Assembly: GCF_003130705.1 (NCBI RefSeq)
Contig: NZ_CP021354.1
Span: 5,704,001 to 5,768,000, forward strand
Origin: Rhodococcus oxybenzonivorans
GTDB lineage: Bacteria; Actinomycetota; Actinomycetes; Mycobacteriales; Mycobacteriaceae
Reading direction: 5' to 3'
DNA length: 64,000 nt
The notes under the pieces are model-generated. The model was given only the letters and a program-made list of their open reading frames with translations. It was not told the DNA's origin and did not search any database. Below are positions 12,929 to 53,931 of this stretch, piece after piece. Every line of letters begins with the position of its first letter. The first letter of the stretch is position 1. Position numbers and translations under genes: made by a program.

Positions 12929-12951
12929 ATAATCTTAAGCAGTTAGGTTTA
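12929..12951. promoter_or_regulatory. Regulon operator, site 1 (between reductase and SDR)
   Basis: ATAATCTT-N7-TAGGTTTA. It is one of 13 copies of the palindrome with consensus near TTAATCTA-N7-TAGATTAA, and lies in the divergent promoter region: 34 bases from the reductase start and 52 bases from the SDR start. Confidence 0.6.
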
Positions 12952-13003
12952 CGAGGCGCAAGCCCGGCCACACCGGCACCCACGACGCGCACAGGAGATC
13001 GCC

Positions 13004-13795
13004 ATGACCCCACACTCATCGACGGACCGGAGTGAGACGGTCCTCGACCTGTTCAGACTGGATGGATCCGTCGCTGTCGTCACCGGTGCCGGCAGTGGCT
13101 TGGGCGCCGGATTCGCCCGCGCTCTCGCCGAGGCCGGCGCCGACGTAGTGATAGCCGCACGCCGGCGCGAGAACCTCGACGCCGTCGCGGTGACAGTAGA
13201 GGCCATCGGTCGCCGCTGCCTGGTCGTCCCCACCGACGTCACCGACCCCGAGCAGTGCGACGCGCTCGCCCAGGCCGCTGTCGCCGAGTTCGGCCGCCTC
13301 GACATCCTGATCAACAACGCCGGGGTCACCAGCTCCGCGCCTGCGACACGCGAGCGCCCTGAGGACTTCCGCGCAGTCCTCGACGTGAACCTGATGGGCA
13401 GCTATTGGGTAGCGCAAGCGTGTGGACGCGTGATGGGCCCGGGCTCGGCCATCGTCAATGTCGCGAGCATGCTCGGCCTCATCAAATCGGCACTCCCGCA
13501 GGCTGCGTACGCGGCCAGTAAAGCGGGAATTATCGGCCTGACCCGCGACCTGTCGCATCAGTGGTCGAAGCGAAAGGGCATCCGCGTCAATGCGATCGCG
13601 CCGGGATTCGTGGAGACCGACCTGATTTCCGAAATGTCGTCGGATACGCTCGACGAGTTCCTGCGCGGCAGTTCGCTCGGCCGCACCGCGACGCAGCGCG
13701 AGATAGACGGAGCCGTGGTGTTCCTCGCCAGTCGCGCCTCCGGCTACATCACCGGCTCGACGCTCGCCGTCGACGGCGGCACCTCCGGACACTGA
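13004..13795 (+). CDS. Short-chain dehydrogenase/reductase
   Basis: 263-residue classical SDR. Cofactor motif TGAGSGLG (about residue 27), NNAG (about 103), catalytic Ser in NVASM, YAASK (about 168-172), and PGFVETD after the active site. Arg residues after the second strand (AARRREN) suggest NADP(H) preference. AGGAG precedes the ATG. It heads the rightward unit controlled by site 1, with a hydrolase gene 26 bases behind. It probably oxidises or reduces a hydroxyl group of the pathway substrate. Confidence 0.9.
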   Translation: MTPHSSTDRSETVLDLFRLDGSVAVVTGAGSGLGAGFARALAEAGADVVIAARRRENLDAVAVTVEAIGRRCLVVPTDVTDPEQCDALAQAAVAEFGRLDILINNAGVTSSAPATRERPEDFRAVLDVNLMGSYWVAQACGRVMGPGSAIVNVASMLGLIKSALPQAAYAASKAGIIGLTRDLSHQWSKRKGIRVNAIAPGFVETDLISEMSSDTLDEFLRGSSLGRTATQREIDGAVVFLASRASGYITGSTLAVDGGTSGH

Positions 13796-13821
13796 TTCCG
13801 ACGACGAAGGACCATGCAACC

Positions 13822-14685
13822 ATGACGTACTCCACCACGGTGACCACCCTCCGCGGCGACGGCGTTTCCCTGGTCGCCGACCTGTGGGAACCCCGGTCGG
13901 AACCGAAAGGCACCGTCCTGCTGCTCCATGGCGGCGGGCAGACCAGACACTCGTGGCAGCGCACCGGAATACGCCTGGCCCAGCAGAGATGGCGCGCGTA
14001 TTGCATCGACGCACGTGGCCACGGCGACAGCCAATGGTCGCCCGACGGCGACTACAGCCCCGACGCGCACGCCCGCGACATCCGCACAGTCGTCAGCGAC
14101 CTCGGTGAACCCCCGGTGCTCGTCGGTGCGTCCATGGGCGGCATGGCCTCACTCGTGGCATCGGGCGACGAACCAGGTCTTGCCCGGGCGCTGGTCCTGG
14201 TAGATATCACCCCGAAGGCCGAACCGGCGGGTCTCGCCAAGATCACCGACTTCATGCAAGCCGGGTTGTCCGGCTTCGACAGCCTCGACGACGCGCTGGG
14301 AGCAGTGATCGAATACAACCCGCACCGCACTCGCGCGCCGCGGGTGGAGGGTTTGCGCAAGAACCTGCGTGAACACGAGGGTCGTTGGTACTGGCATTGG
14401 GATCCGCGGATGCTGTCGGACAGGACGAATTCGGCGGCCGCGGCGGCCGAACGCGAAAGTCGTGCTCGCGCCGCAGCGCGGGCGATCAGGATTCCGACGT
14501 TGCTCATTCGTGGCGCACAGTCCGATGTGGTCAGTCCGGAAGGAGCGCGCGAACTGCTGGAGCTGATTCCCGGGTCCCGCTATATAGACGTGGGCGGCGC
14601 TGGGCACATGGTGGGCGGCGACGACAACGACGTCCTGAGTCGAGGCTTGGTGGAGTTCCTCGACGAGGCGGTTCTCACCGCATGA
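13822..14685 (+). CDS. Alpha/beta hydrolase
   Basis: 287 residues. LLLHGGGQTRHSW gives the oxyanion HG motif (residues about 33-45), GASMGGM the nucleophile elbow with catalytic Ser near residue 103, and GGAGHMVGG the catalytic His near the end; the acid is probably in IRGAQSDVV. No signal peptide, so it is cytoplasmic. The lid region is Ala/Arg rich. In a CoA-based pathway it may hydrolyse an ester, lactone or C-C bond, but the substrate is not predictable. It starts at the ATG at 13822, 26 bases after the SDR gene. Confidence 0.88.
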   Translation: MTYSTTVTTLRGDGVSLVADLWEPRSEPKGTVLLLHGGGQTRHSWQRTGIRLAQQRWRAYCIDARGHGDSQWSPDGDYSPDAHARDIRTVVSDLGEPPVLVGASMGGMASLVASGDEPGLARALVLVDITPKAEPAGLAKITDFMQAGLSGFDSLDDALGAVIEYNPHRTRAPRVEGLRKNLREHEGRWYWHWDPRMLSDRTNSAAAAAERESRARAAARAIRIPTLLIRGAQSDVVSPEGARELLELIPGSRYIDVGGAGHMVGGDDNDVLSRGLVEFLDEAVLTA

Positions 14686-14770
14686 CCACCTGAGCGACTG
14701 GAACATATACCATTCTGACCATCTGCCGCGCCGACCAGGCCCGGCGTACTGCTCGAACCGAAAGCGAGAC

Positions 14771-15442
14771 ATGGCCCGACCGTCGAAACCTCTGATCAGT
14801 CGCGCAGCCGCCGTGGCAGCGTCCATCGAGATCATCGACTCCGAGGGACTCGATGCGTTCAGCCTGCCACGCCTGGCGAAACACATCGGAGTGCGTGCTC
14901 CCTCGCTCTACCATCACTTCTCCGACAAGTCGGCGATCCTCGCCGCGGTCGCACGACAGATCGCCGGCGCCGGAAACCTACCGCGACGCAAGCCCGGCCC
15001 GGACTGGCCCGAATTCTTCGTGACGCTGAGCATGAACCTTCGCCGGTCGATCCTCAAACACCGCAACGCCGCGCCGATCCTGCTGCAATATCTGCCCCGT
15101 GACCTGCTGATCGGCACCTACGAGGACACCGCCCGGTTTCTCGAGGAGTCCGGAGTGCCCGCGCACCTGCACGTCCAGATTCTCGACGGCATGGAGCGCC
15201 TGACGCTCGGTGCGGTGCTTACCGAGGCGATGCGCAAACCGAGCACGAAGTCCACGATCTTCCCCAACGTCGACCCGGAGTCGCAGCCCCTGCTGTCCAA
15301 GGCTCTCGCCGCTAACGAGATGACCTCCCGGCAGTTGTTCGAGGAAATGATTCGCAGCTTCTTGCACGGCGTGGTGCGCAACGAGAACGTCGCGATCACG
15401 GACGCCGCGCCCTCCGACAACGTCAAGATTTCGGCCAACTGA
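14771..15442 (+). CDS. TetR-family regulator (paralogue of the one at 26393)
   Basis: 223 residues. The N-terminal helix-turn-helix domain holds PLISRAAAVAASIEIID, FSLPRLAKHIGV and SLYHHFSDK. The ligand-binding domain (from about residue 75) matches the second TetR of the window throughout, with shared segments such as YLPRDLL/FLPRDVL, ILDGMERL/ILDGLEKL and IFPNVD/VFPKVD; the pair are clear paralogues at roughly half identity by eye. It is the last gene of the SDR-hydrolase unit, separated by 85 bases without an operator copy of its own. It is a candidate repressor of the 13-site regulon. Confidence 0.9.
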   Translation: MARPSKPLISRAAAVAASIEIIDSEGLDAFSLPRLAKHIGVRAPSLYHHFSDKSAILAAVARQIAGAGNLPRRKPGPDWPEFFVTLSMNLRRSILKHRNAAPILLQYLPRDLLIGTYEDTARFLEESGVPAHLHVQILDGMERLTLGAVLTEAMRKPSTKSTIFPNVDPESQPLLSKALAANEMTSRQLFEEMIRSFLHGVVRNENVAITDAAPSDNVKISAN

Positions 15443-18002: not shown

Positions 18003-18025
18003 GTTGCCTACAACCATTAGGTCAA
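18003..18025. promoter_or_regulatory. Regulon operator, site 2 (before SDR-aldehyde dehydrogenase unit)
   Basis: GTTGCCTA-N7-TAGGTCAA, 116 bases before the SDR start on the minus strand. It is among the weaker copies: five of eight arm positions pair, but the CTA-N7-TAG core is exact. Confidence 0.5.
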
Positions 18026-19083: not shown

Positions 19084-19106
19084 TAAATCTAATGCCAATC
19101 GGTATT
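19084..19106. promoter_or_regulatory. Regulon operator, site 3 (before GNAT gene)
   Basis: TAAATCTA-N7-TCGGTATT. The left arm is perfect; the right arm is of the TCGGT variant shared with sites 6 and 7. It overlaps a second small inverted repeat, CCAAT-N4-ATTGG (19095-19108). Confidence 0.6.
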
Positions 19107-19148: not shown

Positions 19149-19177
19149 TTTACAGCTAAATCTACATAAGTTAGATT
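19149..19177 (+). promoter_or_regulatory. Predicted promoter of Rieske oxygenase gene 1
   Basis: TTTACA (19149-19154), 17-base spacer, TAGATT (19172-19177), close to the sigma-70-type -35 and -10 layout. The -10 box is the right arm of the operator. The same arrangement with the same spacing occurs before the paralogous Rieske gene at 53901. Confidence 0.55.
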
Positions 19178-19180
19178 TAG
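19156..19180. promoter_or_regulatory. Regulon operator, site 4 (best copy, perfect 9-bp arms)
   Basis: CTAAATCTA (19156-19164), N7 CATAAGT, TAGATTTAG (19172-19180). The arms are exact inverted repeats, which makes this the best evidence that the repeated element is a dimer-binding site. It covers the spacer and -10 box of the predicted promoter. Confidence 0.75.
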
Positions 19181-19221: not shown

Positions 19222-20391
19222 ATGACAGAGGTCGGAATCCCCCGCGAGGAACGCATCCGTCGCGCGCTCGACCATCTGCGCAACGACACCACCGACGAGT
19301 TCGAGCACGTCACGTGGTTCGAACCCGTCGAGTTCACCGATCCGGACATCGCCAAGATCGAACGTGAGCGTGTATTCGGCCGGGTTCCGTCGATCATCAT
19401 CCACGGCTCCGAGATCCCCCGCGCAGGGGATTTCGTCACCCTGCAGTTACCGCGAAACAACGTCATCATCGTCCGCCAGCGCGATGGCAGCGTCAAAACC
19501 CTCGTGAACCAGTGCCGTCATCGCGGGGCCATGGTCGAGAAGGAGGAGAAAGGCCGCTGCCGCCTGTTCTCCTGCCCGTACCACCGCTGGTCCTACGATA
19601 CCGACGGCAGCCTGCGCACCATCACCCGCGACAACACGTTCGGTGATGCCGACCGCTCCGAACGCAACCTCGTCCAACTACCCACCGAAGAGCGGCACGG
19701 CTTCGTCTGGGTGGTCGACGACGCCGACGCAACCATCGATGTCGCCGACTGGCTCGGGCCCGAGATGGACTCGATCATGGGGTCCTACGGCATGGACAAG
19801 ATGGTGACCACTCGGGTTCAACGCTTCGACGAGCCCATCAACTGGAAGTTGATGCAGGACGCGTTCCTCGACGGGTACCACATTCAGTACGCGCACCCCA
19901 ACACCGCCGCGAAGCACATCCACACGAATGTCATGGCCTTCGAGGATTTCGGAAACCATTGCCGGTTCCTCAATCTCCGCAAGACCATCGACCGATGGAT
20001 CGAGGAGGACCCCGGCGATCGCAGTCTCGCCGAGCACATCACGGAAAGCCACCTGGTGGGGCCCAACAGTACGTTGCTCAAACAGCCCGACCATTTCCAG
20101 CTGCTCACCTTCCGCCCTCACCGCAGTGATCCGCAGCGCTGCCACATGGAGATTCGTCTGGTCGCGCCTACGCTCGAAGAGAGCGGCTTGACGGAAGAAC
20201 GCTGGAACCGGATCTGGGACAAGAACGTCGAGATCCTGGTAGCAGTGCTCCACAACGAGGACTTCCCGATCTTGCGAGATTCACAGGTTGCCATGGACAG
20301 CGCAAACGCCGGCAACATGCTCCTCGGCCGGAACGAAGTCGCCAACCAGGTCTTCCGCCGCGCAATCCAGAAACTCGTCAACGAGAGCTGA
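19222..20391 (+). CDS. Rieske non-haem iron oxygenase, alpha subunit (1 of 3)
   Basis: 389 residues from the ATG at 19222 (GGAGG upstream); longer frames would run through the promoter. The Rieske [2Fe-2S] ligands are in CRHRG and CPYHRW (about residues 98-121). The catalytic iron site has DGYHIQYAHPNTAAKH, with the two His ligands. It is a full-length, single-gene alpha-type oxygenase with no beta subunit nearby. The paralogue at 54013 has the same length, matching residues along the chain, and the same promoter layout. The donor is probably the reductase at 11932 or a ferredoxin. Substrate: probably a ring-containing acid, unproven. Confidence 0.9.
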   Translation: MTEVGIPREERIRRALDHLRNDTTDEFEHVTWFEPVEFTDPDIAKIERERVFGRVPSIIIHGSEIPRAGDFVTLQLPRNNVIIVRQRDGSVKTLVNQCRHRGAMVEKEEKGRCRLFSCPYHRWSYDTDGSLRTITRDNTFGDADRSERNLVQLPTEERHGFVWVVDDADATIDVADWLGPEMDSIMGSYGMDKMVTTRVQRFDEPINWKLMQDAFLDGYHIQYAHPNTAAKHIHTNVMAFEDFGNHCRFLNLRKTIDRWIEEDPGDRSLAEHITESHLVGPNSTLLKQPDHFQLLTFRPHRSDPQRCHMEIRLVAPTLEESGLTEERWNRIWDKNVEILVAVLHNEDFPILRDSQVAMDSANAGNMLLGRNEVANQVFRRAIQKLVNES

Positions 20392-22145: not shown

Positions 22146-22168
22146 GTTATCTAATGCACGTAGGTTGT
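22146..22168. promoter_or_regulatory. Regulon operator, site 5 (before DUF1059-SDR-ferredoxin unit)
   Basis: GTTATCTA-N7-TAGGTTGT, 101 bases before the DUF1059 start. CTA-N7-TAG core exact. Confidence 0.55.
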
Positions 22169-26392: not shown

Positions 26393-27058
26393 TCATGATC
26401 CGAGCAGATCTCGCAGGCTTTCGTCGCTTACCGGCGTGGTCGCTAGACCCAGCACCCCGGCAAGGAATCCGCGGATGGTGACCACGAAAAGCTCGCGCGA
26501 CGACCACTGGTTGGCCTCGAGCGCGCGGGCGAGGGTCGGGTGTCTACGCTCGTCGACCTTAGGGAAGACCTCTGTGCTGCCGACCGGATCGCGCATGAGA
26601 TCGCTCAGAGTGGTTGCGAGAGCGAGTTTCTCCAGACCGTCCAGTATCACCACCTGGAGTTGCGCCGGAACGCCCCCGTCCTCGAGGATTCGCGCACACC
26701 GTTCATACGTCCGGGTCAGGACATCACGGGGAAGAAATTGCACCAACACGAGGGCGGCATTGGGATGACGAAGGATTGCGTCGCGGTAATTGAGGCTGAG
26801 TTCGACGAACCACTCCACCCAGTCCGTACCGGACGAATACTCGGGCACCGTCGCCCCGGTCATCAGCTCCTTCGCCACCTCGGTCATGAGCTCACGACGA
26901 TCAGCGAAGTGGTGGTACAACGAGGAGGTACTTACGTTCAGCTGTTTGGCCACGCGCGGCAGACTGAACGCATCCATGCCCTCGGTGTCGATGATCTCGA
27001 TGCTTGCCGCGACGGTCGCACTCCGGCTGATCAGAGGCTTTGCCGGTCTCCCCATCAT
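26393..27058 (-). CDS. TetR-family regulator (paralogue of the one at 14771)
   Basis: 221 residues. Its ATG overlaps the flavin reductase stop (ATGA), so it is coupled to the catabolic genes. HTH region PLISRSATVAASIEIID, FSLPRVAKQLNV, SLYHHFADR. The first helices are nearly identical to the other TetR, while the recognition helix differs at two or three positions (STS for RAP before SLYHH). It is a candidate repressor of the regulon and would be autoregulated through site 6. Confidence 0.9.
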   Translation of the reverse strand: MMGRPAKPLISRSATVAASIEIIDTEGMDAFSLPRVAKQLNVSTSSLYHHFADRRELMTEVAKELMTGATVPEYSSGTDWVEWFVELSLNYRDAILRHPNAALVLVQFLPRDVLTRTYERCARILEDGGVPAQLQVVILDGLEKLALATTLSDLMRDPVGSTEVFPKVDERRHPTLARALEANQWSSRELFVVTIRGFLAGVLGLATTPVSDESLRDLLGS

Positions 27059-28931: not shown

Positions 28932-30107
28932 TCACAGCACGTCGCGCGTGCAGAGAAGGACCGAGCTCGACAATGCGGCCATGGGCCCGCCGATGAAGAG
29001 CGAGACCTGCGCATCGGGAACCTGGTTGGTGGAGGTTCCACGCACCTGGCGCACGGCCTCGACTGCCAGACCCATTCCGTTGACGAACGAATCCGCGAGG
29101 TTTCCACCACTGGTATTCACCGGGAGCAGCCCGTGCGGGGCGGTCAGATTCTCGAGTGTCATGACCTTGCCGGCCTCGGCACCGGGTGGGCACAGACCGT
29201 GATCGATCAGTGCAGCCACACCCGAGCCACTGAAGTTCTCGTATACCTGGACGACGTCGACCTGGTCCGGACGGAGGTCGGCATCCGCCCACAAGGTTTC
29301 GGCAACTCCGGCGGCTCCGGAGAATCCGGCCGAGGTGTAGTCGAGATCGTTCTCGCTGTCGACGGCGTATCCGCCGACCGCACCCTGACTGCCGGCCAGC
29401 ACGTAGGCCGGACTGGGTGAAAGTTCCTCGGCGCGGTCGGCGGCGACCAGGATGAGCGCCACAGCCCCGTCGTTCTCCCGTGAGCAGTCGTACAGCCGGT
29501 AGGGCTCGACGATCATCCGGGATGCTTCGTATTCGGCTTCGTCGAGCGGACGGCCGTACGCGGCGGCGTACGGGTTGCGCTGCGCGTGGAAGTAGTCGGC
29601 GAGAACCAGGGATCTCATCGCGGATTCCGGAACACCGTCGTGTTCGAGCATCCGTCGGGTGCGCAGCGCGCAGGCTTGCGCCGGCGATCCAACCCCATGC
29701 GGGAGCATATGGCCGTCGAAGTGATGCTTGGCGTATCCGAGTCGGCCGGAATCCTGCTGTGCCATGGCACGATACACGACCACGCACCGCGCTTGCCCTG
29801 CAGCGATAGTGACCGCAGCGTTGGTGATCGCCGCGGCAGCACCACCTCCGCCACCACCCCAGATCATGGTGGACCATCGGATCCGGGGCGACATGAGCGA
29901 CGCACCCACGACAGTCCCGTCGTTGTCGCCGCCCCCGTACGAGACGAATCCGTCGATTTCGCGTGGTGACACACCGGCGTCAGCAGCAGCCTCGACGATG
30001 GCTCGCAAAGTCATCCGGAGCTCACTGTCCGGCGATTCTCCTCGCTTGTAATGGAATTCACTGGCACCCACGACGGCTGCAGCACCACGGAGGAAGGTAT
30101 CGGTCAT
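28932..30107 (-). CDS. Thiolase-like lipid-transfer protein, probable retro-aldolase (Ltp2-like, 1 of 2)
   Basis: 391 residues of the SCP-x/Ltp thiolase fold. The nucleophilic Cys of true thiolases is absent: the segment that should carry it reads WGGGGGGAAAAITNA. Retained features are YDCSRENDGAVALIL, VYENFSG and NTSGGNLADS. The same pattern is found in Ltp2, which with a DUF35 protein cleaves beta-hydroxyacyl-CoA by retro-aldol reaction in sterol side-chain breakdown. The DUF35 gene lies directly upstream with an ATGA overlap, as in that system. A near copy is at 40469. Confidence 0.85.
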   Translation of the reverse strand: MTDTFLRGAAAVVGASEFHYKRGESPDSELRMTLRAIVEAAADAGVSPREIDGFVSYGGGDNDGTVVGASLMSPRIRWSTMIWGGGGGGAAAAITNAAVTIAAGQARCVVVYRAMAQQDSGRLGYAKHHFDGHMLPHGVGSPAQACALRTRRMLEHDGVPESAMRSLVLADYFHAQRNPYAAAYGRPLDEAEYEASRMIVEPYRLYDCSRENDGAVALILVAADRAEELSPSPAYVLAGSQGAVGGYAVDSENDLDYTSAGFSGAAGVAETLWADADLRPDQVDVVQVYENFSGSGVAALIDHGLCPPGAEAGKVMTLENLTAPHGLLPVNTSGGNLADSFVNGMGLAVEAVRQVRGTSTNQVPDAQVSLFIGGPMAALSSSVLLCTRDVL

Positions 30108-34953: not shown

Positions 34954-34976
34954 TTAATCTAAATGCTATCGGTTAA
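34954..34976. promoter_or_regulatory. Regulon operator, site 7 (between MFS and P450)
   Basis: TTAATCTA-N7-TCGGTTAA. The region 34790-35190 otherwise holds no gene. The P450 start is 214 bases to the right, a long leader for a bacterial gene, so the site may mainly serve the MFS gene or the P450 leader may have its own signal. Confidence 0.65.
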
Positions 34977-35190: not shown

Positions 35191-36429
35191 ATGACCTCGA
35201 CACAGCTCGATCTTCCCGAACATCTGATCACCGACTTCGATGTGTACGACCCGTCCCTGGCCGTGCCCTCCGACGTGTTCCAGGAGCGCGTGGCCGCGCT
35301 GCGCAAGCAAGGGCCGGTCCTCTACTCCCCGCATCACGGGGGCCATTGGGTGGTCACGCGGTACAAAGAAGCGCTTCAGGTACTCCAGGATCCGGAGACG
35401 TTCTCGAGCTTTCCGAACAATCTGCTCAATGCCGCGCAGGGCAAGTTCCTTCCGCTCGAACTCGATCCGCCGGAACACAGCTACTACCGGCAGGCACTGC
35501 AGCCGCTGTTCAGCCCCAAGCAGATGAAGGCGCTCGAGCCCGAGATCCGGAAAATAATCACCGAGTTGATCGACCAATTCGCCCACAAAGGCGAATGCGA
35601 GTTCATCTCGGAGTTCGCACACGAGCTGCCGACTCGAATCTTCCTTGCGCTCATGGGATGGCCGCTGAGCGACGCGCCACAGTTCACGGAGTGGACCGAC
35701 ATCACCCTGCAGGGCATCCCCGGGGCGAGCGAGGTGGAATCGGCCGAGGCGCGCGCGAAGGCGGCCGGAGAGATTTACGAGTACTTCGGGAAGGTCGTCG
35801 CGCGAGTTCGATCCGGTGAAGACAGTTCCGAGAGCCTCACCGCGCAGATCATCAACACCCCGCTCGACGTCGACGGAACGCCTCGGCCACTCACCGACGA
35901 GGAACTGAGCCGGATGTTCTTCCTGCTGCTCGTCGCGGGACTGCACACCGTCCAGGGTGCTCTCGCCTGGGGGCTGATTCACCTGTCGCACAATCCCGAG
36001 CAGCGCGAGGCGATCATCGACGACCCGACGCTGATTCCGTCGGCAGTGGAGGAGATCCTGCGGATCGAAACTGCCACGAGCAGCGGGCGTCGCGCGACCC
36101 GGGATGCCGAGATCGGTGGTGTCTCCATCAAGGCCGGCGATCAACTGTTGGTCGTCATGACGTCCGCCAACCGCGACGACGACGAGTTCGACAGCCCTGA
36201 AGAGCTACAGATTGAACGGCACCCCAACCGACACATCGGGTTCGGCGCCGGGCCGCACCGCTGCCTCGGCTCCCATCTCGCGCGGCTCGAGCTGCGACTC
36301 GCGATGGAGGAGATCCACAGGAGGATTCCCGACTACGCGCTGGTTCCGGACAACCCCGCGGTCTTCCATTCGTCCCAGGTTCGCGGATGCGAGAAGCTAC
36401 CGATCACGTTCACGCCGTCGCCGCACTGA
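35191..36429 (+). CDS. Cytochrome P450
   Basis: 412 residues, soluble bacterial class I P450. Start ATG at 35191 with GAAGGA upstream. ExxR in EEILR, haem loop FGAGPHRCLGSHLAR with ligand Cys358. The I-helix reads VAGLHTVQG: Thr253 is present but the acidic residue before it, usually Asp or Glu (Asp251-Thr252 in P450cam), is His252 (codon CAC). This acid normally helps deliver protons to the bound oxygen, so activity or coupling may be unusual. The ferredoxin at 20673 and an FprB-like reductase are plausible partners. A terminator follows. Confidence 0.92.
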   Translation: MTSTQLDLPEHLITDFDVYDPSLAVPSDVFQERVAALRKQGPVLYSPHHGGHWVVTRYKEALQVLQDPETFSSFPNNLLNAAQGKFLPLELDPPEHSYYRQALQPLFSPKQMKALEPEIRKIITELIDQFAHKGECEFISEFAHELPTRIFLALMGWPLSDAPQFTEWTDITLQGIPGASEVESAEARAKAAGEIYEYFGKVVARVRSGEDSSESLTAQIINTPLDVDGTPRPLTDEELSRMFFLLLVAGLHTVQGALAWGLIHLSHNPEQREAIIDDPTLIPSAVEEILRIETATSSGRRATRDAEIGGVSIKAGDQLLVVMTSANRDDDEFDSPEELQIERHPNRHIGFGAGPHRCLGSHLARLELRLAMEEIHRRIPDYALVPDNPAVFHSSQVRGCEKLPITFTPSPH

Positions 36430-36508: not shown

Positions 36509-38935
36509 TCACACCGTGGAGGAGACCGGTGACAGCGCTGGATCGTCCGCGGGCGGTTGCAGCACACCGTCGTGCACGAGCGAATCGATCTCGACTGTGC
36601 TCAGTCCGAGCACTTCCTCGCAGATTGCCCGTGTCTGCGCACCTGCCAGGGGTGCTTGCCGCAGCGGCCAGTCCGGCAAGGCCGCGAAGTGCGCCACCTG
36701 CTTCGCCGTCGGAAGCGGCGCCGGAAGCAGCTCGTGTTCGAGCTCGGTGTAGGCACCCCGCGCGGTCAGGTGCGGATCGGTCAACAGGTCCGGCAGCCGG
36801 ATCATCGCGCCGGTCGGTATCCCGACGGCCTGCAACGTCTCCATCGCTTCGGTCGGCGTGTGCAGCAGCAGCCACTGCGCCAGCACCTCGTCGGCCTCGG
36901 CCCGGTGCGCAATTCTGAACTCGGGGGTGGCGAACCGCGGATCGTCGACGAGGTCGGGGCGTCGGAGCACGCCGCACAGTGCGACCCAGTCGGCGTCGTC
37001 GCGGACGGTGACGACACACCACTCGTCGTCACCCGCACACGGGTACACCCCGGAGGGCGCCGAGTATGGATCGGAATTGCCAGGTGCGTTGATCGAGCCC
37101 GGCGCGAGGTGTTCGGCGACGAGCTGGTTCCCGAGTTGGACGATCGCGGTGTCGGCCTGGGCGACTTCGATGGCGGCACCGCGTCCAGTCTGCAGCCGGT
37201 GGATCAACGTGGCGAGAATGGTGGTTGCGGTGACCTGTCCGGCGATGTGGTCGGGGTAGACGGTCGAGCCGTCACACAGTCCGTCGGAAGCATCGGAGTA
37301 TCGCCAGAGCGCCGAGACGCCGCAGGCTGCCCGAACCAACGGCCCGTAGCCCAGTCGCTTGTTCCACGGGCCGACACTGCCGAAGGCGCTGCTCTCCGAC
37401 ACGATGATGCGCGGATTGATCGCGGCGAGCTCGTCATATGACAGACCCATCGAAGCAAGGGTGCCGGGCTTGAAATTGGCGAGCACGATGTCCGCTTCCT
37501 CGGCCAGTCGCTTGAAGATGCGGATACCTTCGGGGCTGCGCAGGTTGATCCCGAGGCTGCGACGATTGCGATGGCCCCAGGCGACGGATGCCGCGAGCGC
37601 AGCGCCGCGCTTGGATTGGCGCAGCCCGTCGGGGAACTGAGAGTTCTCGATCTTGATGACATCGGCACCGTTGTCCGCGAACTGGCGCCCGAGCTCGGCG
37701 CCGAACACCACGACACCCATATCGAGGACCCGAAGCCCCTCGAACGGACGTGCACCCGGCTCGCGCTGCGGTGCGGGTATAGAAACGCAGGCGTCGACCC
37801 CGGCGGACCGGAGAACCAGATCGTTGTGCTCCCCGAGCTGCGGTGCACGGAAGCGCAATCCGGCGCGTTCGCCGTTGATCTTCGCGTAACCGGACGGGAC
37901 CCGAGCGGTGAGACCGAAAGCGATTTCGGCGTCGACGAACGTACCGGACGCAGCGAAGTGCTCGGTGGTCAATACCTCGGCCACCGTGTTGAGGCCGCCG
38001 ATCGGAATTCCGCGGGCAGCACCTTCCGCGACGAGGTCGTCACGGGTGTACGTGCTGAACAGCTGCTCGATGAGCGGATTGAGCCGCTCGGATGCGGCGA
38101 ATCGGGCGGGAATGGTGTCGTACTTCGGATCCGCGAATTCTTCCGGCCGACCCAACCATTCGTACATCGCTTGCCACTGACGCTTCGCGAGCAGGCAGAT
38201 TCGCACCTGCCCGTCGCCGCACCGATACACCGGGTAGAAGTTGGCCGCATCAGGCCGGCCCCGGGGGAAGTCCTCGGATCGACCCGCGGCAGCGGAGCCC
38301 TGCACACCGAATCCGGGGTCGAAACCGTGCGCGATGACCTCGAACGCGGAGATATCGACGAACTGCCCGTGGCCGGTATGCAAGCGGTCGTAGTAGGCGA
38401 GCAGCGCGGACCATGCCGTATGAACACCCACCGATTCGTCGATCAGCCCGTTCGGCGGCAGCAGCGGGGCCTCTCCCGGCTCACCGGAGCGCGAGAGCAC
38501 ACCGCTCAGCGCGTAGAGGACCTGCTCGGTCGCCGCCCAGTCGCGATACGGACCGCTCTGACCGAAACCGCTGATCGACACGGCCACGAGCGCGGGATTG
38601 ACGCGGCACAGGTCTGCGGCGCCCACCCCACGGGTGGCCAGAAAGCCCGGCGGGAACGACTCGAGGAGAATGTCCGAGCGCTGTGCCAGCAAGCGCAGCC
38701 GTTCCCGGTCGTCGTCCGTGTCGAGGTCGAGCACGATGCCGCGCTTGTTGGAGTTGCGCAGCGCGAACGGGATGCTCACACCGTCCCGTATCGGCTGGGC
38801 CGTGCGCGAGGCCGATCCTCCCGGAAGTTCGACGCGGACGACCTCGGCGCCGAGGTCGGCGAGAAACCGCCCCGCCGTGTCCCCGAATCCGTCCGTCAGC
38901 TCCAATACCCGGACACCCTGCAGAGGTAGTGCCAT
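36509..38935 (-). CDS. Fused double CaiB/BaiF-family CoA transferase
   Basis: 808 residues, twice the usual length. Both halves are complete class III CoA transferase domains: half 1 (residues about 1-400) has VRVLELTDGFGDTAGRFLAD, ISGFGQSGP and catalytic Asp in GLIDESVGVH; half 2 (about 410-790) has LRVLDMGVVVFGAELGRQF, SSAFGSVGP and catalytic Asp in YPDHIAGQV. Class III enzymes are interlocked dimers, so the fusion is probably a built-in heterodimer with two active sites. The start at 38935 fits the GGAG six bases upstream better than the ATG just before. It ends the unit controlled by site 8. Confidence 0.9.
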   Translation of the reverse strand: MALPLQGVRVLELTDGFGDTAGRFLADLGAEVVRVELPGGSASRTAQPIRDGVSIPFALRNSNKRGIVLDLDTDDDRERLRLLAQRSDILLESFPPGFLATRGVGAADLCRVNPALVAVSISGFGQSGPYRDWAATEQVLYALSGVLSRSGEPGEAPLLPPNGLIDESVGVHTAWSALLAYYDRLHTGHGQFVDISAFEVIAHGFDPGFGVQGSAAAGRSEDFPRGRPDAANFYPVYRCGDGQVRICLLAKRQWQAMYEWLGRPEEFADPKYDTIPARFAASERLNPLIEQLFSTYTRDDLVAEGAARGIPIGGLNTVAEVLTTEHFAASGTFVDAEIAFGLTARVPSGYAKINGERAGLRFRAPQLGEHNDLVLRSAGVDACVSIPAPQREPGARPFEGLRVLDMGVVVFGAELGRQFADNGADVIKIENSQFPDGLRQSKRGAALAASVAWGHRNRRSLGINLRSPEGIRIFKRLAEEADIVLANFKPGTLASMGLSYDELAAINPRIIVSESSAFGSVGPWNKRLGYGPLVRAACGVSALWRYSDASDGLCDGSTVYPDHIAGQVTATTILATLIHRLQTGRGAAIEVAQADTAIVQLGNQLVAEHLAPGSINAPGNSDPYSAPSGVYPCAGDDEWCVVTVRDDADWVALCGVLRRPDLVDDPRFATPEFRIAHRAEADEVLAQWLLLHTPTEAMETLQAVGIPTGAMIRLPDLLTDPHLTARGAYTELEHELLPAPLPTAKQVAHFAALPDWPLRQAPLAGAQTRAICEEVLGLSTVEIDSLVHDGVLQPPADDPALSPVSSTV

Positions 38936-38972
38936 CATGCGCTCCAAAGTGTGTGCTCGTCGCGGACTATGG

Positions 38973-40445
38973 TCAGCGAGTTCCGAAGTACACCGACTTC
39001 GAGGTGAAGTACGGTGCCAGTCCCTCCGGGCCGAGCTCGCGGCCCAGCCCCGACGACTTGACGCCACCGAACGGCGCGTCGAGGTCGAGGGCGTAGTAGT
39101 TCACTCCCACAGTGCCGCTGTGAATTCGAGCCGCCAGATCCAGACCGTGCTGTTCGTCCGTGGTCCAGACCGTGCCACCGAGGCCGTATTCGGAGTCGTT
39201 GGCGATGGCGACGGCCTCATCTTCACCGTCGTACGCGGTGATGGTCAGCACCGGGCCAAAGATCTCTTCCTGCGCGATGCGCGCGGAGTTGTCGACGCCG
39301 GCAAACACGGTCGGCTCGACGAACCACCCCTGCGGCTGCGCGGCGGGTGTGCCGCCGCCCGTGCTGATGCGATAGCCCTCGGCACGGCCTGCCTCGATGT
39401 AGCCGAGGACGCGGTCACGCTGCGCGGCCGAGACGAGCGGGCCGATCTCGGTGGCCTTGTCGAGCGGATCGCCGACGGTCAGTGCCCGCACGGTCTCGGT
39501 GACGGCGTCGACGACCTCGCCATACCGGGAGCGGGAGGCGAGGATCCGGGTGCTCGCGTGGCAGGTCTGACCGTTGTTCACCAGCGACACTTCGAGCAAA
39601 TTCTCAACGAACACGTCGAGATCGGCGCGCTCGGTGACGATCGCCGCGGACTTGCCGCCGAGTTCGAGAGTGACCGGACGCAGCAACCGGCCACACACTT
39701 CACCGATGGCGCGACCGGCCGCGGTGGATCCGGTGAACGCCACCTTGTCGACTCCCGGATGGGAAACCAGATAGGCGCCGGCGTCCCGGCCGGCCGGCAC
39801 AACGTTGACCACGCCGTCGGGGAGACCGGCCTCGACCGCAGCCTCGGCGAACACGAACGCGTCGAGCGCCGTCTCGGGGGCGGGCTTGAGCACCACCGTG
39901 CATCCCGCCGCCAGGGCAGGAGCGAGTTTCATCGCGGCAAGCGGTTGCGGGTAGTTCCACGGCGTGATGGCCGCGACCACACCCACCGGCTCGCGACGCA
40001 CGACGGTGCGGCCACCGAAGGCGCTCGGCCGCACATCCTCGTTGGGCGCATCGCGAATCAGGGCTGCGTAGTACGAAATCATGGCTGCGGGGCCGAAACC
40101 GTTGACAGCGCCCGAAAGGGCGATCGGCATACCGTTCTCCCGGCTCACCAGGCGGGACGTGTCCCGACCACGTGACTTGAGGGCGGCAGCTAACTTGTCG
40201 AGCAGATCGGCCCGCTCGACGTTGGTCAGCGCGCTCCACTGACCACTCAGTGCGGTGCGTGCGGCCGCGACGGCCGCATCGATGTCGGCTTCGGACGCCA
40301 TCGCGGAGGTGCCCAGTACCTTCTCGGTGGCTGCCTCGATGACATCGACGGTGCCTCCAGACTTCGGTGCCACCCAACGGCCACCGATGAACAGCTCATT
40401 CCTGTCCGTGGCGTTGTCACCGCGTGTCGTGTCACGGTCGTTCAT
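38973..40445 (-). CDS. NAD(P)-dependent aldehyde dehydrogenase (3 of 3)
   Basis: 490 residues from the ATG at 40445. PWNYP, KPAPETALDAFV, FTGSTAAGRAI, LELGGKSAAI (base Glu), NNGQTCHASTR (catalytic Cys) and PFGGVKSSGLGRELG are all there. It lies 23 bases after the second Ltp2-like gene, so it most likely oxidises the aldehyde made by that aldolase. Confidence 0.93.
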   Translation of the reverse strand: MNDRDTTRGDNATDRNELFIGGRWVAPKSGGTVDVIEAATEKVLGTSAMASEADIDAAVAAARTALSGQWSALTNVERADLLDKLAAALKSRGRDTSRLVSRENGMPIALSGAVNGFGPAAMISYYAALIRDAPNEDVRPSAFGGRTVVRREPVGVVAAITPWNYPQPLAAMKLAPALAAGCTVVLKPAPETALDAFVFAEAAVEAGLPDGVVNVVPAGRDAGAYLVSHPGVDKVAFTGSTAAGRAIGEVCGRLLRPVTLELGGKSAAIVTERADLDVFVENLLEVSLVNNGQTCHASTRILASRSRYGEVVDAVTETVRALTVGDPLDKATEIGPLVSAAQRDRVLGYIEAGRAEGYRISTGGGTPAAQPQGWFVEPTVFAGVDNSARIAQEEIFGPVLTITAYDGEDEAVAIANDSEYGLGGTVWTTDEQHGLDLAARIHSGTVGVNYYALDLDAPFGGVKSSGLGRELGPEGLAPYFTSKSVYFGTR

Positions 40446-42475: not shown

Positions 42476-42498
42476 TTAACCTTATGACATTAGTTAAA
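42476..42498. promoter_or_regulatory. Regulon operator, site 8 (before SnoaL-DUF35-aldolase-ALDH-CoA transferase unit)
   Basis: TTAACCTT-N7-TAGTTAAA, 51 bases before the SnoaL-like start. Confidence 0.55.
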
Positions 42499-45942: not shown

Positions 45943-45965
45943 GCAGACTAATGGTTTTAGATTAA
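45943..45965. promoter_or_regulatory. Regulon operator, site 9 (divergent crotonase / SDR)
   Basis: GCAGACTA-N7-TAGATTAA. The right arm is perfect and faces the SDR gene, whose start is 45 bases away; the crotonase start is 34 bases away on the other side. Confidence 0.6.
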
Positions 45966-46009: not shown

Positions 46010-46840
46010 ATGACGAACCTCGACGGCAAGGTCGCCGTGGTGACAGGAGCCGCGAGCGGAATCGGCGCAGCCACGGCCCGCACGTTCGCCGAACGCGGAG
46101 CCCGCGTCGTCGTGGCCGACATCGACGACCCGCGGGGCCAGGCCGTCGCCGCCGGCCTCGGCGACCGTGGCGCCTACCTGCACACCGATGTACGCACCGA
46201 GGCCGACGTCGAGGCCGCGGTCGCACTGGCCGTCGATCGGTTCGGCCGGCTCGACTGCATGGTCAACAACGCCGGCCGGGTGGGCGCGTGGACCTTCCTC
46301 GAGGACACATCGCTCGACGAGTGGGAGAACGGGTTCGCGATGCTCGCTCGCAGTGCGTTCCTCGGGACCAAGCATGCCGCGCGCGTGATGCGCGATCAGG
46401 GGTCGGGCAGCATCATCAATGTGTCGAGCGTGGCAGGCGTCCGTACCGGATTCGGACCGCACCCGTACAGCGCCGCGAAAGCCGCAGTGCTGCAACTGAC
46501 CCGAACCGCCGCCGTGGAGCTGGCCGAATACCGGATCCGAGTCAACGCACTGATCCCCGGAGGTGTCGCCACCCGCATCGTCGGCCACGGCGCCGGCCTC
46601 GAGGACGACGCGCTCGACCGCAGCGTCGATGCCGTGCGGCGCAGCCTGACGAACTTCCAGCCCATTCCCCGCGCCGGTGAGCCGGAAGACCTCGCACAAG
46701 CCGCCGCCTACCTCGCCTCCGACGACTCCACGTTCGTCACCGGACAGTCCCTCGGGGTCGACGGTGGGTTGACACTGGGCAAGAAGTGGCCGTCCAACTA
46801 CCGGGAAGAGGCGAAGGCTGCGTCGACGTTGCTCCAATAG
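46010..46840 (+). CDS. Short-chain dehydrogenase/reductase
   Basis: 276-residue classical SDR from the ATG at 46010 (GAAGGAG six bases upstream). TGAASGIGAATA, VADID after strand 2 (NAD preference), NNAG, NVSSVAG, YSAAK and LIPGGVATRI. Resembles 2,5-dichloro-2,5-cyclohexadiene-diol or 3-alpha-hydroxysteroid type dehydrogenases in general pattern only. A dihydrodiol made by a Rieske dioxygenase would be a fitting substrate, but this is inference. Confidence 0.9.
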   Translation: MTNLDGKVAVVTGAASGIGAATARTFAERGARVVVADIDDPRGQAVAAGLGDRGAYLHTDVRTEADVEAAVALAVDRFGRLDCMVNNAGRVGAWTFLEDTSLDEWENGFAMLARSAFLGTKHAARVMRDQGSGSIINVSSVAGVRTGFGPHPYSAAKAAVLQLTRTAAVELAEYRIRVNALIPGGVATRIVGHGAGLEDDALDRSVDAVRRSLTNFQPIPRAGEPEDLAQAAAYLASDDSTFVTGQSLGVDGGLTLGKKWPSNYREEAKAASTLLQ

Positions 46841-46841
46841 A

Positions 46842-46864
46842 CAATTCTAAAGTTAATAGGTTAA
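46842..46864. promoter_or_regulatory. Regulon operator, site 10 (before MHS-type MFS gene)
   Basis: CAATTCTA-N7-TAGGTTAA, starting one base after the SDR stop and ending 61 bases before the transporter start. It shows that the transporter gene has its own promoter within the pair. Confidence 0.6.
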
Positions 46865-49173: not shown

Positions 49174-50697
49174 TCACCGAACCTTGTCGTAGTTGTCGGG
49201 CACGTCCGCGAAGGCGTCGCGCAGCTGGCGCTTGGCGATCTTCCCGCTGGGCATCCGGGGCAGGGGTTCGTCCATGAAGACGATGTACCGCGGCACCTTG
49301 TAGTCGGCGAGACGCTCGTTGCAGAAACCGACCACTTCGGATTCCTTCATCTCGATGGTGGTCCGGACCAGCGCGGCCGGGGTCTCCCCGAACTTGGCGT
49401 CGGGAACGCTGATCACCGCGACCTCCTCGACCCCGGGAATCTGATTGATAACGGCCTCGATCTCGGCGGGTGAGATGTTCAGACCACCGGAGATGATCAT
49501 GTCCTTGAGGCGATCGACGAACGTGAGATAACCGTTCTCGTCGAGCTTGCCGAGGTCACCGGTTTGGAGCCAGCCATCGATCAGAGCCGACCGGGTCGCG
49601 TCCTCGTTGCGCCAGTATCCCGGCATCATGCCCGGGCCGCGCAACAGAATCTGCCCGGTTTCGTTGGGGGGAAGGTCATTACCCTCGGCATCGACAACGC
49701 GAATCTTGGTGAAGATGCCACCCCAGCCGCACTTGTCGGGATGCTCGGCTGCCTCCTCGCGCGGCATCGCGGTCGCGGATCCGCCGATCTCGGTCTGACC
49801 GTAGATCTGTCGCAGCGACACTCCCTGGGCTTGCCATTTGTGCAGCAGGTCGACGGGTACGCGTGCGCCACCGACGTGTGCGGTGACCATGTGGCTCAAG
49901 TCCGCGTCGGTGAACCCGGGCGCTTTCGCGATTTGCTCGAAAAGGATCGGCGGCCCCGTCAGGGTGTTGGCCTTGTCCTCGGCCAATATGCGCAGCGTTT
50001 TCGCCGGATCGAATCCCGGCTGCAGGAACAGGGTTCCGCCGTGAAGGACGACGCGCGAGATACCCCAGATGATGCCGGCAGCGGTGAACAGGGGCAGCAC
50101 CAGCACCGGGCGCAGGTTGTTCGGCTGAATCGGTTCCATCAAGTGCCATTCGTGCATTTCGCCGGCGACGGTGGCGTGGGTGAAAATGACGCCTTTCGGC
50201 TTGCCGGTGGTGCCGCTGGTGAACACGATGGCGGTGGGAGTGTCGAGGTCGACCACCGGAGTGCGGTATTTCGCATGATCGCTGCCCCGCAGCGGACGCA
50301 CATCCTTCTCGAACACTGCGATCGAAAAGGTGTTGCGTGCCTGCTGGACTTCTTCGAGGCGCGGCAGCAGCGCCTCCTCGCAGTAGACGACGGTGGGTTC
50401 ACAGTCCTCGACGAGGGTGATGAGCTCGCCGGCGAGCATGCGCTGGTTGAAACCGACCGCGATGGCACCGACCTTCATGGCAGCGAGCGAGGCCACCGCC
50501 CACTCGAGGCTGTTGGCACCGAGGAAGCTCACCCGATCACCGGGCACGACACCGCGCGATTCGAGGTCGTGGGCGACCCCGTCGGCCCATGCGGCCAGCT
50601 CTGCGTAGGTGACGGCGTCGCCGTCGAAGTCGATCGCGGTCAGATCCGGCTTCGACCGGGACCAGTAGGTCAAAGCGTCTACCACAGTGCCGCTCAT
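49174..50697 (-). CDS. Acyl-CoA ligase (class I adenylate-forming enzyme, paralogue of 8764-10281)
   Basis: 507 residues. Start ATG at 50697 with GGAGG five bases upstream. FTSGTTGKPKGV (about residue 160), YGQTEIGG, TGDLGKLDENGYL, DRLKDMI and the C-terminal LPRMPSGKIAKRQL with the catalytic Lys. It differs from the 8764 paralogue in the acyl pocket region. It lies in the regulon (site 11), so it is the likely activating enzyme for the pathway acid. Confidence 0.93.
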   Translation of the reverse strand: MSGTVVDALTYWSRSKPDLTAIDFDGDAVTYAELAAWADGVAHDLESRGVVPGDRVSFLGANSLEWAVASLAAMKVGAIAVGFNQRMLAGELITLVEDCEPTVVYCEEALLPRLEEVQQARNTFSIAVFEKDVRPLRGSDHAKYRTPVVDLDTPTAIVFTSGTTGKPKGVIFTHATVAGEMHEWHLMEPIQPNNLRPVLVLPLFTAAGIIWGISRVVLHGGTLFLQPGFDPAKTLRILAEDKANTLTGPPILFEQIAKAPGFTDADLSHMVTAHVGGARVPVDLLHKWQAQGVSLRQIYGQTEIGGSATAMPREEAAEHPDKCGWGGIFTKIRVVDAEGNDLPPNETGQILLRGPGMMPGYWRNEDATRSALIDGWLQTGDLGKLDENGYLTFVDRLKDMIISGGLNISPAEIEAVINQIPGVEEVAVISVPDAKFGETPAALVRTTIEMKESEVVGFCNERLADYKVPRYIVFMDEPLPRMPSGKIAKRQLRDAFADVPDNYDKVR

Positions 50698-52460: not shown

Positions 52461-53743
52461 GGGCACTCCGGTTGATCGTATGGTTCCGAACTTTGCTCCG
52501 GTGGGAGGAAGCGGTCGCCGTAACGGCCTGCAAGCTCGCGGGCACGAGCGGTGAACCCGTCCTCGCCACCCGGATAGGAACGCCGGAACGACAGAACCCC
52601 ACCCGTGTGCGCTGGGAACCCGATGCCGAGAACAGATCCCGTGTCGGCGTCGGACTCGGATCCCACGACACCTTCGCCGAGACAGCGCAGCGCCTCGAGA
52701 ACCTCGACGAACAACAACCGGTCGCGCATATCGTTCAGTGGAATATGCCGTGCGGGCCCGAACACCTCACGGAGGGCGGGCCACAATCTCGAGCGCTTGC
52801 CATCCGAGTCGTACTCGTAGAAACCCTGACCGTCCGACCTGCCCCCGCGACCGCATTGGTCGATCATCCGGTCGCGGACGCTGTCTGCTTCGCTCCCCCG
52901 CCACGTCCCGCCGTCCGCCTCGACAGCTAGACGGTTCTCGCACTGCACCGCGCGGTTGAGCGTCAAGGTGATCTCGTCGAGCAAGTGGAGCGGCGGCACC
53001 GGATATCCGGCGGCGGTCGCTGCGCGCTCGACAAGGCCCGGATCGATTCCCTCCCCGACCGCGACCAATGCCTCGTCGAGATAGCGCTCCATCACACGGC
53101 TGGTGAAGAATCCCCGACTATCGCCCACCACGATCGGTACCTTTCCGAGCATCCGCGCGTACGCCAGTGATGCCGCGACGGTGGCCTGCGAGGTACGTGA
53201 TCCGACGATCGTCTCCACCAACGACATCCGGTCGGCGGGCGAGAAGAAGTGCATCCCGAGGAAGCACTGCGGGCGTTGTAGCTTCGCGGAGAGAATGGCG
53301 ATCGGCAGGGTCGACGTCGTCGACGCAAGCACCGTAGGAGCCTCGGTGACTGCCTCGACCATCTGCAGCACCTGTTGTTTGACGGCGACGTTCTCTGCGA
53401 CGGCCTCGATTACCAGCGCGGACGCCGACAGATCTCTGGCGCACTCGGTGGGCGTGATGCGCGCGAGCAAGGACTGCGACGTCGACCTGTTCGAGGTCCC
53501 CGCTTTTCTCGCATGCGCTTCCCGCCGGTCGGCGTACGACTTGCCTCGGCGCGCATTCTCCAGCGTTCGCGCCCACAGTACGACGTCGGCTCCTGCCCGC
53601 GCGCAGGTGTAGGCGATGGCAGCGCCCATCATCCCGGCTCCGACGACGCCGATCGTGGTGCCCGCCAGGCTGTCGGACTTCTCACTCGACGGCGCACACT
53701 CGGTCCGTGCTCGTACGGTTCTGACCGACGTGTCAGGGTGCAT
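52457..53743 (-). CDS. 3-hydroxyacyl-CoA dehydrogenase (monofunctional)
   Basis: 428 residues from the ATG at 53743. NAD site GVVGAGMMGAAIAYTCARAG, then VIEAVAENVAVK, STTSTLPI and LGMHFFSPADRMSLVE with the catalytic His, then two C-terminal dimerisation repeats: DSRGFFTSRVMERYL and DMRDRLLFVEVLEALRCLGEG. It resembles the dehydrogenase half of FadB/FadJ without the hydratase half. An in-frame ATG at 53770 is less likely because no ribosome site precedes it. First gene of the unit behind site 12. Confidence 0.9.
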   Translation of the reverse strand: MHPDTSVRTVRARTECAPSSEKSDSLAGTTIGVVGAGMMGAAIAYTCARAGADVVLWARTLENARRGKSYADRREAHARKAGTSNRSTSQSLLARITPTECARDLSASALVIEAVAENVAVKQQVLQMVEAVTEAPTVLASTTSTLPIAILSAKLQRPQCFLGMHFFSPADRMSLVETIVGSRTSQATVAASLAYARMLGKVPIVVGDSRGFFTSRVMERYLDEALVAVGEGIDPGLVERAATAAGYPVPPLHLLDEITLTLNRAVQCENRLAVEADGGTWRGSEADSVRDRMIDQCGRGGRSDGQGFYEYDSDGKRSRLWPALREVFGPARHIPLNDMRDRLLFVEVLEALRCLGEGVVGSESDADTGSVLGIGFPAHTGGVLSFRRSYPGGEDGFTARARELAGRYGDRFLPPEQSSEPYDQPECP

Positions 53744-53836
53744 CGGCAGGTACCTCCCGTTCGATTGCATTCGGCTGCCCGGCCATCGTCGACATCCCGT
53801 CGCCAAGTGAATTCGATCACACCGACCGCAGTGGGG

Positions 53837-53859
53837 ATAATCTAATCTCAGTAGATTCC
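53837..53859. promoter_or_regulatory. Regulon operator, site 12 (before 3-hydroxyacyl-CoA dehydrogenase)
   Basis: ATAATCTA-N7-TAGATTCC, 94 bases before the dehydrogenase start. The AATCTA-N7-TAGATT core is a perfect inverted repeat. Confidence 0.65.
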
Positions 53860-53900
53860 CGGCGCAAGACCCGACTCCTGCCGCGACCACGGCGCCGGGG

Positions 53901-53929
53901 TTTACAGGTAAAACTACGTCAGTTAGATT
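53901..53929 (+). promoter_or_regulatory. Predicted promoter of Rieske oxygenase gene 3
   Basis: TTTACA (53901-53906), 17-base spacer, TAGATT (53924-53929). Same boxes, spacing and flanks (CGGGG before, GATTCGC after) as the promoter at 19149. Confidence 0.55.
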
Positions 53930-53931
53930 TA
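53909..53931. promoter_or_regulatory. Regulon operator, site 13 (before Rieske gene 3)
   Basis: TAAAACTA-N7-TAGATTTA. Right arm perfect. It covers the promoter spacer and -10 box exactly as site 4 does. Confidence 0.65.

What the first reader, a model, noticed from the sequence alone, without database searches (positions are those of the whole stretch)
12929..53931. A 13-copy palindromic operator defines one large catabolic regulon
Reading the intergenic regions shows the same 23-bp imperfect palindrome before nearly every transcription unit from 12.9 to 53.9 kb. Consensus is near TTAATCTA-N7-TAGATTAA, always with 7 bases between arms. Sites start at 12929, 18003, 19084, 19156, 22146, 33353, 34954, 42476, 45943, 46842, 50807, 53837 and 53909. 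The copy at 19156-19180 has perfect 9-bp arms (CTAAATCTA/TAGATTTAG). I saw none in the intergenic regions of 1-12.9 kb or 56.4-64 kb. This predicts co-regulation of about 40 genes by one dimeric repressor. I do not recognise it as a described motif.
Basis: partly seen in the sequence, partly recalled or inferred. Interest (0 to 1): 0.85.

Follow-up and report, generated by a model that had tools for sequence, protein, structure and literature searches.

The report
TetR operator regulon for catabolism
Thirteen copies of one DNA switch sequence, placed in the promoter regions of a Rhodococcus-type gene cluster for breaking down organic acids, very probably let one or two related TetR-type repressors switch the whole cluster, and the same switch sits beside the same kind of repressor in many other actinobacteria.

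Summary
All 13 sites exist (19156 is in register at 19157) and form one 23-bp motif, near TWAAYCTAAnGnCnTTAGRTTWA. Left out one at a time, each ranks 3rd to 13th in the window. In 400 kb of other own-genome DNA scanned, only two positions reach 15 bits, both just past the window end. The window encodes two paralogous TetR proteins, each inside a predicted operon headed by a site. Loci fetched by the TetR alignment alone carry the motif in 74 of 80 cases, 268 sites against 5.2 expected, including 6 of 9 loci sharing no other window gene at 45% identity. 247 of 268 sites lie outside gene bodies. In 61 of 228 sites a -35-like hexamer stands at a fixed distance, so the right arm doubles as a -10 element. 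Best reading: TetR-type repressors cover these promoters until an acid or acyl-CoA inducer releases them. 'One repressor' is too simple: two candidates share the motif. The regulon continues at least 4.5 kb, probably 22 kb, past the window. A new regulon of a known kind; binding, ligand and substrate are untested.

The parts
12929..12951 (.). operator; between reductase gene (-) and SDR-hydrolase-TetR1 operon (+)
   Evidence: 27.5 bits; counterpart in G018
18003..18025 (.). operator, weakest; before SDR-ALDH operon (-)
   Evidence: 18.1 bits; counterpart in G018
19084..19106 (.). operator; before GNAT-like gene (-), 73 bases from the next
   Evidence: 25.1 bits; counterpart in G018
19157..19179 (+). 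operator overlapping the predicted promoter of Rieske oxygenase A (finding gave 19156)
   Evidence: 30.9 bits; -35-like TTTACA at offset -8
22146..22168 (.). operator; upstream of SDR 20906-21787 (-)
   Evidence: 22.0 bits
33353..33375 (.). operator heading the minus-strand operon cupin-LLM-SDR-DUF35-thiolase-...-flavin reductase-TetR2-ALDH
   Evidence: 26.1 bits; its 600-base surroundings have no match in the 120-kb G018 stretch
34954..34976 (-). operator; divergent MFS (-) / P450 (+), overlaps a minus-strand promoter-like match
   Evidence: 29.6 bits; TTGACG-17-TAGATT
42476..42498 (-). operator heading thiolase-ALDH-CaiB operon (-)
   Evidence: 28.6 bits; TTGACG at offset -10
45943..45965 (+). 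operator; divergent enoyl-CoA hydratase operon (-) / SDR (+)
   Evidence: 25.6 bits; TCGACA at offset -9
46842..46864 (.). operator before MFS transporter (+)
   Evidence: 24.3 bits
50807..50829 (-). operator before CoA ligase-SDR operon (-)
   Evidence: 23.0 bits; TTGCCA at offset -8
53837..53859 (.). operator before 3-hydroxyacyl-CoA dehydrogenase / ferredoxin-reductase operon (-)
   Evidence: 23.7 bits; counterpart in G018
53909..53931 (+). operator overlapping the predicted promoter of Rieske oxygenase B - acyl-CoA dehydrogenase (+)
   Evidence: 27.3 bits; TTTACA at offset -8
14771..15442 (+). TetR1, candidate regulator, third gene behind site 12929
   Evidence: PF00440 and PF02909; TetR class D E 5.8e-19
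26393..27058 (-). TetR2, paralogue (50% identical), in the operon headed by 33353
   Evidence: PF00440 in the longer ORF 26393-27412; alignment A2
11932..12912 (-). Rieske-type oxygenase reductase, predicted target
   Evidence: homologues at 50% or more in 32 of 80 TetR loci
19222..20391 (+). Rieske oxygenase A, predicted target
28932..30107 (-). thiolase-like protein (with DUF35/ChsH2-like partner 30104-30607), predicted target
35140..36429 (+). cytochrome P450, predicted target
36509..39067 (-). double-length CaiB-type CoA-transferase, predicted target
46028..46840 (+). SDR, predicted target (start approximate)
49174..50697 (-). acyl-CoA ligase, predicted target
54013..56387 (+). Rieske oxygenase B (54013-55182) and acyl-CoA dehydrogenase (55236-56387), predicted targets

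Best explanation
The 13 sites are operators for one subfamily of TetR-type repressors, represented here by the paralogues TetR1 (14771-15442) and TetR2 (26393-27058). A repressor dimer covers a 23-bp palindrome that, in many sites, fills the space between the -35 and -10 hexamers, its right arm (TAGRTT) serving as the -10 element, and so blocks RNA polymerase. An inducer, most likely a carboxylic acid substrate or its CoA thioester, binds the C-terminal domain, releases the dimer and opens up to 16 predicted transcription units. Both regulator genes lie in predicted operons that carry the operator and so should repress themselves. Shown by computation: the motif, its clustering, its promoter overlap, its linkage to this TetR subfamily. 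Inferred: binding, repression, inducer, and which paralogue acts at which site.
For: Sites real and clustered. Retrieval by the TetR alignment (best 80 of 161) recovers the motif in 74 of 80 loci, 268 sites versus 5.2 for 50 mirrored column-permuted matrices. 6 of 9 loci with no other window gene at 45% identity over half its length also have it, 9 sites versus 0.28. 21 of 268 sites lie inside gene bodies, which cover 77% of that DNA. A -35-like hexamer at offset -10 to -7 in 61 of 228 unique sites of 18 bits or more; 17 control windows mean 6.3, maximum 14. TetR-linked regions of relatives carry 1 to 16 matches of 12 bits or more in each of 19 regions. Of 5 relatives only 28-42% identical (L055, L061-L064), 4 have a site within 1.2 kb. 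With at most 1 mismatch, 14 genomes with the TetR have 60 forward and 56 reverse matches, 47 without have 18 and 24; controls 2 and 4 versus 4 and 12. TetR1 aligns to TetR class D over residues 9-198: Pro39, Tyr42, His44 kept, and T+4, which Tyr42 touches in tetO, is 80% conserved; Arg28 and Gln38, which read G+2 and A+3 of tetO (PMC7102968, passages), are Pro and Ala, and +2 and +3 are not held as G and A.
Against: No binding or expression data. 6 of 80 loci have no site of 15 bits (L143, L146, L171, L183, L191, L192; three of them hold under 12 kb). Part of the conservation of the TAGRTT arm may reflect -10 function, although the left arm mirrors it. About three quarters of sites (167 of 228) show no -35-like hexamer at the fixed offset. 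A sister motif TAATCGAA-N5-TTCGATTA inflates the counts in both groups, and genomes with the TetR are mostly large ones of the same genus. In TetR2 the Pro39 column is Ser.
Confidence: 0.85

Rival explanations
1. Two modules, two repressors (a variant of the best reading): TetR1 and TetR2 each own a subset of the sites and the shared motif only reflects paralogy; the cluster is two regulons side by side.
For: TetR1-type and TetR2-type genes lie far apart or on separate contigs in G006, G019 and G023, and 11-12 kb apart in G000 and G018. Half-sites with C at +5 (TCGG) are 4 of 18 in TetR2 regions and 2 of 86 in TetR1 regions; in the window they are in 19084, 33353 and 34954, two of which stand at the head of the TetR2 operon.
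Against: The TetR2 set is 9 sites, several of them counterparts of each other. R. erythropolis-type loci, with a TetR1-like recognition helix, also have C+5 (4 of 12 half-sites). The consensus motifs are otherwise alike.
Confidence: 0.4
2. The sites bind another regulator, and the TetR genes are only passengers of the cluster.
For: Linkage cannot prove binding; in 67 of 80 loci the TetR travels with three or more window genes.
Against: 6 of 9 loci with no other shared window gene still have sites. 4 of 5 distant TetR relatives have a site within 1.2 kb. Position over the -10 element fits repression rather than activation (inference).
Confidence: 0.08
3. Much of the motif is simply a conserved promoter (-10 element) and not an operator.
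For: TAGRTT stands at -10 spacing from a -35-like hexamer in 61 of 228 sites.
Against: The left arm mirrors the right arm; G at +6 has frequency 1.00 (rounded) in 428 half-sites, though the score threshold favours this. In ten other own-genome stretches (200 kb) nothing exceeds 12.9 bits, whereas promoters must be common there.
Confidence: 0.05

Closest known systems
TetR (class D/B) and the tet operator
   Same: Near full-length sequence similarity (E 5.8e-19); palindrome with the TCTA-N7-TAGA spacing of tetO (tetO sequence recalled); Tyr42 and T+4 conserved; operators within promoters
   Different: Arg28 and Gln38 replaced, G+2/A+3 not conserved; conserved arms reach +/-11; 13 or more copies over catabolic genes, not an efflux gene
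KstR / KstR2 sterol regulons of mycobacteria and rhodococci (PMC3068626, passages read)
   Same: TetR-type repressor with several operator copies over an actinobacterial catabolic cluster, autoregulated, conserved among actinomycetes
   Different: 14-bp palindromes (KstR2: AnCAAGnnCTTGnT), unlike this 23-bp motif
Mce3R of M. tuberculosis (PMC11667970, passages read)
   Same: TetR-type, lipid-related regulon, about 25-bp sites
   Different: Double TetR chain and two asymmetric, non-palindromic sites separated by 53 bp; only an HTH-region match to TetR1 (E 1.4e-6)

Membership tests
TetR family transcriptional regulators | N-terminal TetR_N helix-turn-helix | tested here: met
   PF00440 above its cut-off in TetR1 and in the ORF containing TetR2
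TetR family transcriptional regulators | C-terminal ligand and dimer domain | tested here: met
   PF02909 in TetR1, 30.7 bits, cut-off 21; for TetR2 only by alignment with TetR1
TetR family transcriptional regulators | binds a palindromic operator at its own operon as a dimer | tested here: inconclusive
   Palindromes head both predicted operons and 74 of 80 relatives have sites nearby; binding itself not testable
TetR family transcriptional regulators | small-molecule release from DNA | not testable with these tools
   none
Tetracycline repressor (TetR of tet genes) | Arg28 and Gln38 that read G+2 and A+3 of tetO | tested here: not met
   Pro and Ala in TetR1; residue roles from PMC7102968 passages
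Tetracycline repressor (TetR of tet genes) | reaches the curated score of the family model | tested here: not met
   NF010319: 85.8 bits, cut-off 265; neighbours are catabolic genes
KstR/KstR2 regulons | 14-bp KstR-type palindrome | tested here: not met
   consensus compared by eye with AnCAAGnnCTTGnT

The most novel reading that the evidence does not exclude
Two catabolic modules that are separate in other rhodococci, each with its own TetR paralogue, share one operator code and have been brought together here into a single super-regulon read by both repressors, so that full induction would need two inducers or involve mixed dimers.
Probability: 0.3. Interest if true: 0.65.

Novelty: new member of a known kind. 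Interest (0 to 1): 0.5.

Why it matters
It gives a concrete regulator-operator pair for a large uncharacterised catabolic cluster and for related loci in Rhodococcus, Nocardia, Gordonia, Mycobacterium, Nocardioides and others. The operator can define the regulon in each genome and guide the search for the inducer and hence the substrate. It also offers a natural set of TetR relatives in which recognition residues and operator bases can be compared with the classical tet system.

Tried and rejected
A sequence-only covariance model of the sites (R1) was too weak for a whole genome: one place, two rows, best E 1.39; pattern and PWM scans replaced it. Plasmid searches gave nothing informative: 4 records with short pieces, 4 records at about 30% for TetR1, 9 at 28-33% for Rieske A. 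A named substrate was sought by NCBIfam, PDB and papers without success; the naphthenic-acid chcpca genes (PMC5906575, passages) and steroid clusters (listings) share enzyme types, no match was shown. Rejected or left doubtful: site 56471 (12.5 bits, not seen in G018); the mce operon as a sure target (site 83227 only 14.3 bits; an 8-kb mce query has no match in the 120-kb G018 stretch). The agreement of promoter direction with the downstream gene in all six window sites with a -35-like hexamer is weak support: four of the six lie in divergent regions where either direction meets a gene; only 42476 and 50807 are informative. Motif in print: the listings and passages of PMC3068626, PMC11667970 and PMC6262395 (QsdR) show no description of it; PMC3511530 was seen as abstract and outline only. 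No structure prediction or protein-database search was run.
Full report
OBSERVATION. The 13 sites were read from the window; 19156 is in register at 19157. A palindromic weight matrix from the 13, both strands, 21.7 bits of information, gives leave-one-out scores of 14.6 to 28.3, each left-out site ranking 3rd to 13th in the window; 40 first-order Markov sequences had a mean maximum of 10.8 and an overall maximum of 15.5. The next position in the window is 56471 at 12.5 bits. The symmetry is real but partial: 4 to 9 of 11 arm positions per site.

GENOME CONTEXT. The window is C1:5704001-5768000 of an 8.01-Mb genome in 4 contigs. I scanned 200 kb of flanks and ten 20-kb stretches elsewhere. In the joined 264 kb, 15 positions reach 15 bits: the 13, plus 68490 (17.2) and 86635 (18.9) past the window end; none lies upstream of 12929. 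The highest score in the ten other stretches is 12.9. These ten are not a random sample: four contain places that matched the pattern. That pattern search (up to 2 mismatches) found 24 distinct places: 10 of the 13 sites, 68490, and 13 others; control 5 forward and 11 reverse against 18 and 18. Of the 13 others 12 were scored, 2.4 to 14.5 bits. G018, the closest relative fetched (TetR2 96% identical), has counterparts, assigned by me by order and sequence, of 12 of the 13 sites and of 68490 and 86635; 33353 is missing together with its surroundings.

GENES. The sites precede genes for a Rieske reductase, SDRs, aldehyde dehydrogenases, two Rieske oxygenases, a P450, MFS transporters, thiolase-like proteins with a ChsH2/DUF35-type partner, a double CaiB CoA-transferase, LLM oxidoreductases, an acyl-CoA ligase, 3-hydroxyacyl-CoA and acyl-CoA dehydrogenases. 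Not every gene is covered: the MFS gene at 22212-23744 has no site of its own. This looks like catabolism of a cyclic or branched organic acid as CoA thioester (inference); the substrate is not identified. Past the window come a CoA ligase, a CaiB protein, a third Rieske oxygenase, an mce-type import operon and a second P450.

REGULATOR. Two TetR proteins, 50% identical, are encoded. TetR1 is third in SDR-hydrolase-TetR1 behind site 12929; TetR2 overlaps the end of the flavin reductase gene by 4 bases in the long operon behind 33353 (operons predicted from spacing). With the family alignment as query, 161 relatives were found and the best 80 kept. With the window matrix unchanged, 74 of 80 hold a site of 15 bits or more, 268 in all, while 50 mirrored column permutations average 5.2. 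To separate 'follows the TetR' from 'follows the gene cluster', loci were binned by the number of other window genes found at 45% identity over half their length: with none, 6 of 9 have sites (9 against 0.28 expected); with 1-2, 2 of 4; with 3-5, 10 of 10; with 6 or more, 56 of 57. In L149 (R. erythropolis), a locus of the first bin, the two sites lie between an MFS gene and an acyl-CoA ligase gene followed by a thiolase gene: other genes, same theme. In 61 genomes at one mismatch or less, the 14 with the TetR have 60 forward and 56 reverse matches, the 47 without have 18 and 24; reversed-pattern controls 2 and 4 versus 4 and 12. G038 has the TetR but no match at this stringency. Part of both counts is a sister motif.

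MECHANISM. Of 268 sites 247 lie outside gene bodies (bodies cover 77%; simple gene caller, 5' ends shaved). Of 228 unique sites of 18 bits or more, 61 have a hexamer with 5 of 6 matches to TTGACA at offsets -10 to -7 in one orientation; 17 control windows average 6.3, maximum 14. At that distance TAGRTT of the right arm falls where a -10 hexamer should be (17-18 bases), so there the operator fills the spacer and the -10 box. The other 167 sites show no such hexamer; they may use weaker -35 elements or lie differently. In the window six sites have one at -10 to -8 (19157, 34954, 42476, 45943, 50807, 53909). All six point toward a gene, but four are in divergent regions, so only 42476 and 50807 test the direction. 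For 45943 the direction led to a plus-strand gene that my gene caller had missed; Pfam found an SDR there.

RECOGNITION. TetR1 aligns with TetR class D. PMC7102968 (passages) states that Arg28 and Gln38 bond to the bases at +2 and +3 (G, A) and that Tyr42 touches T+4. In TetR1 Arg28 and Gln38 are Pro and Ala, while Pro39, Tyr42 and His44 are kept; TetR2 has Thr and Ser at the Gln38 and Pro39 columns. The operators keep T+4 (80% of 428 half-sites); +2 is mixed (A .32, T .33, G .27) and +3 is mostly T (.67). That tetO reads TCTA-N7-TAGA, the same spacing as here, is from memory.

WHAT REMAINS OPEN. Binding, repression, inducer and substrate are untested. The division of labour between TetR1 and TetR2 is open: C at +5 is 4 of 18 half-sites in TetR2 regions and 2 of 86 in TetR1 regions, but the TetR2 set is small and R. 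erythropolis-type loci have it too. In G006 and G019 the two TetR types lie more than 1 Mb apart and in G023 on separate contigs; here and in G018 they are 11-12 kb apart. The cluster therefore looks assembled from two modules with a common operator code.

VERDICT. A real and strongly supported TetR-type regulon with a specific, widely conserved operator; a new member of a known kind.

Noticed in passing
G010 C2:34989-37373, G018 C1:4063467 and 4065827, G023 C48:44401 and 46760: A sister palindrome TAATCGAA-N5-TTCGATTA occurs in two or three copies within 2.4 kb in several genomes of the genus, apart from the present cluster; probably the operator of another regulator.
   Followed up: no
window 57223-63271: Two molybdopterin oxidoreductase genes flank a ferredoxin/NAD-binding protein gene; no site of 15 bits nearby, so this stretch may not belong to the regulon.
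   Followed up: partly
window-equivalent 73257-82994 (L027): An mce-type import operon stands between two regulon sites here; an 8-kb piece of it has no match in the 120-kb G018 stretch, and its own site (83227) is weak.
   Followed up: partly
window 45962-46837: The minus-strand ORF chosen by composition is very likely spurious; the plus strand encodes an SDR from about 46028.
   Followed up: yes
window 36509-39067: A CaiB-type CoA-transferase of double length (852 aa, two matched stretches).
   Followed up: no
window 19084/19157 and 53837/53909: Two divergent regions before Rieske oxygenases both carry two operators 72-73 bases apart; a 73-base pair also occurs in G001 (R. koreensis contig, 21916/21989 of the joined stretch).
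   Followed up: partly
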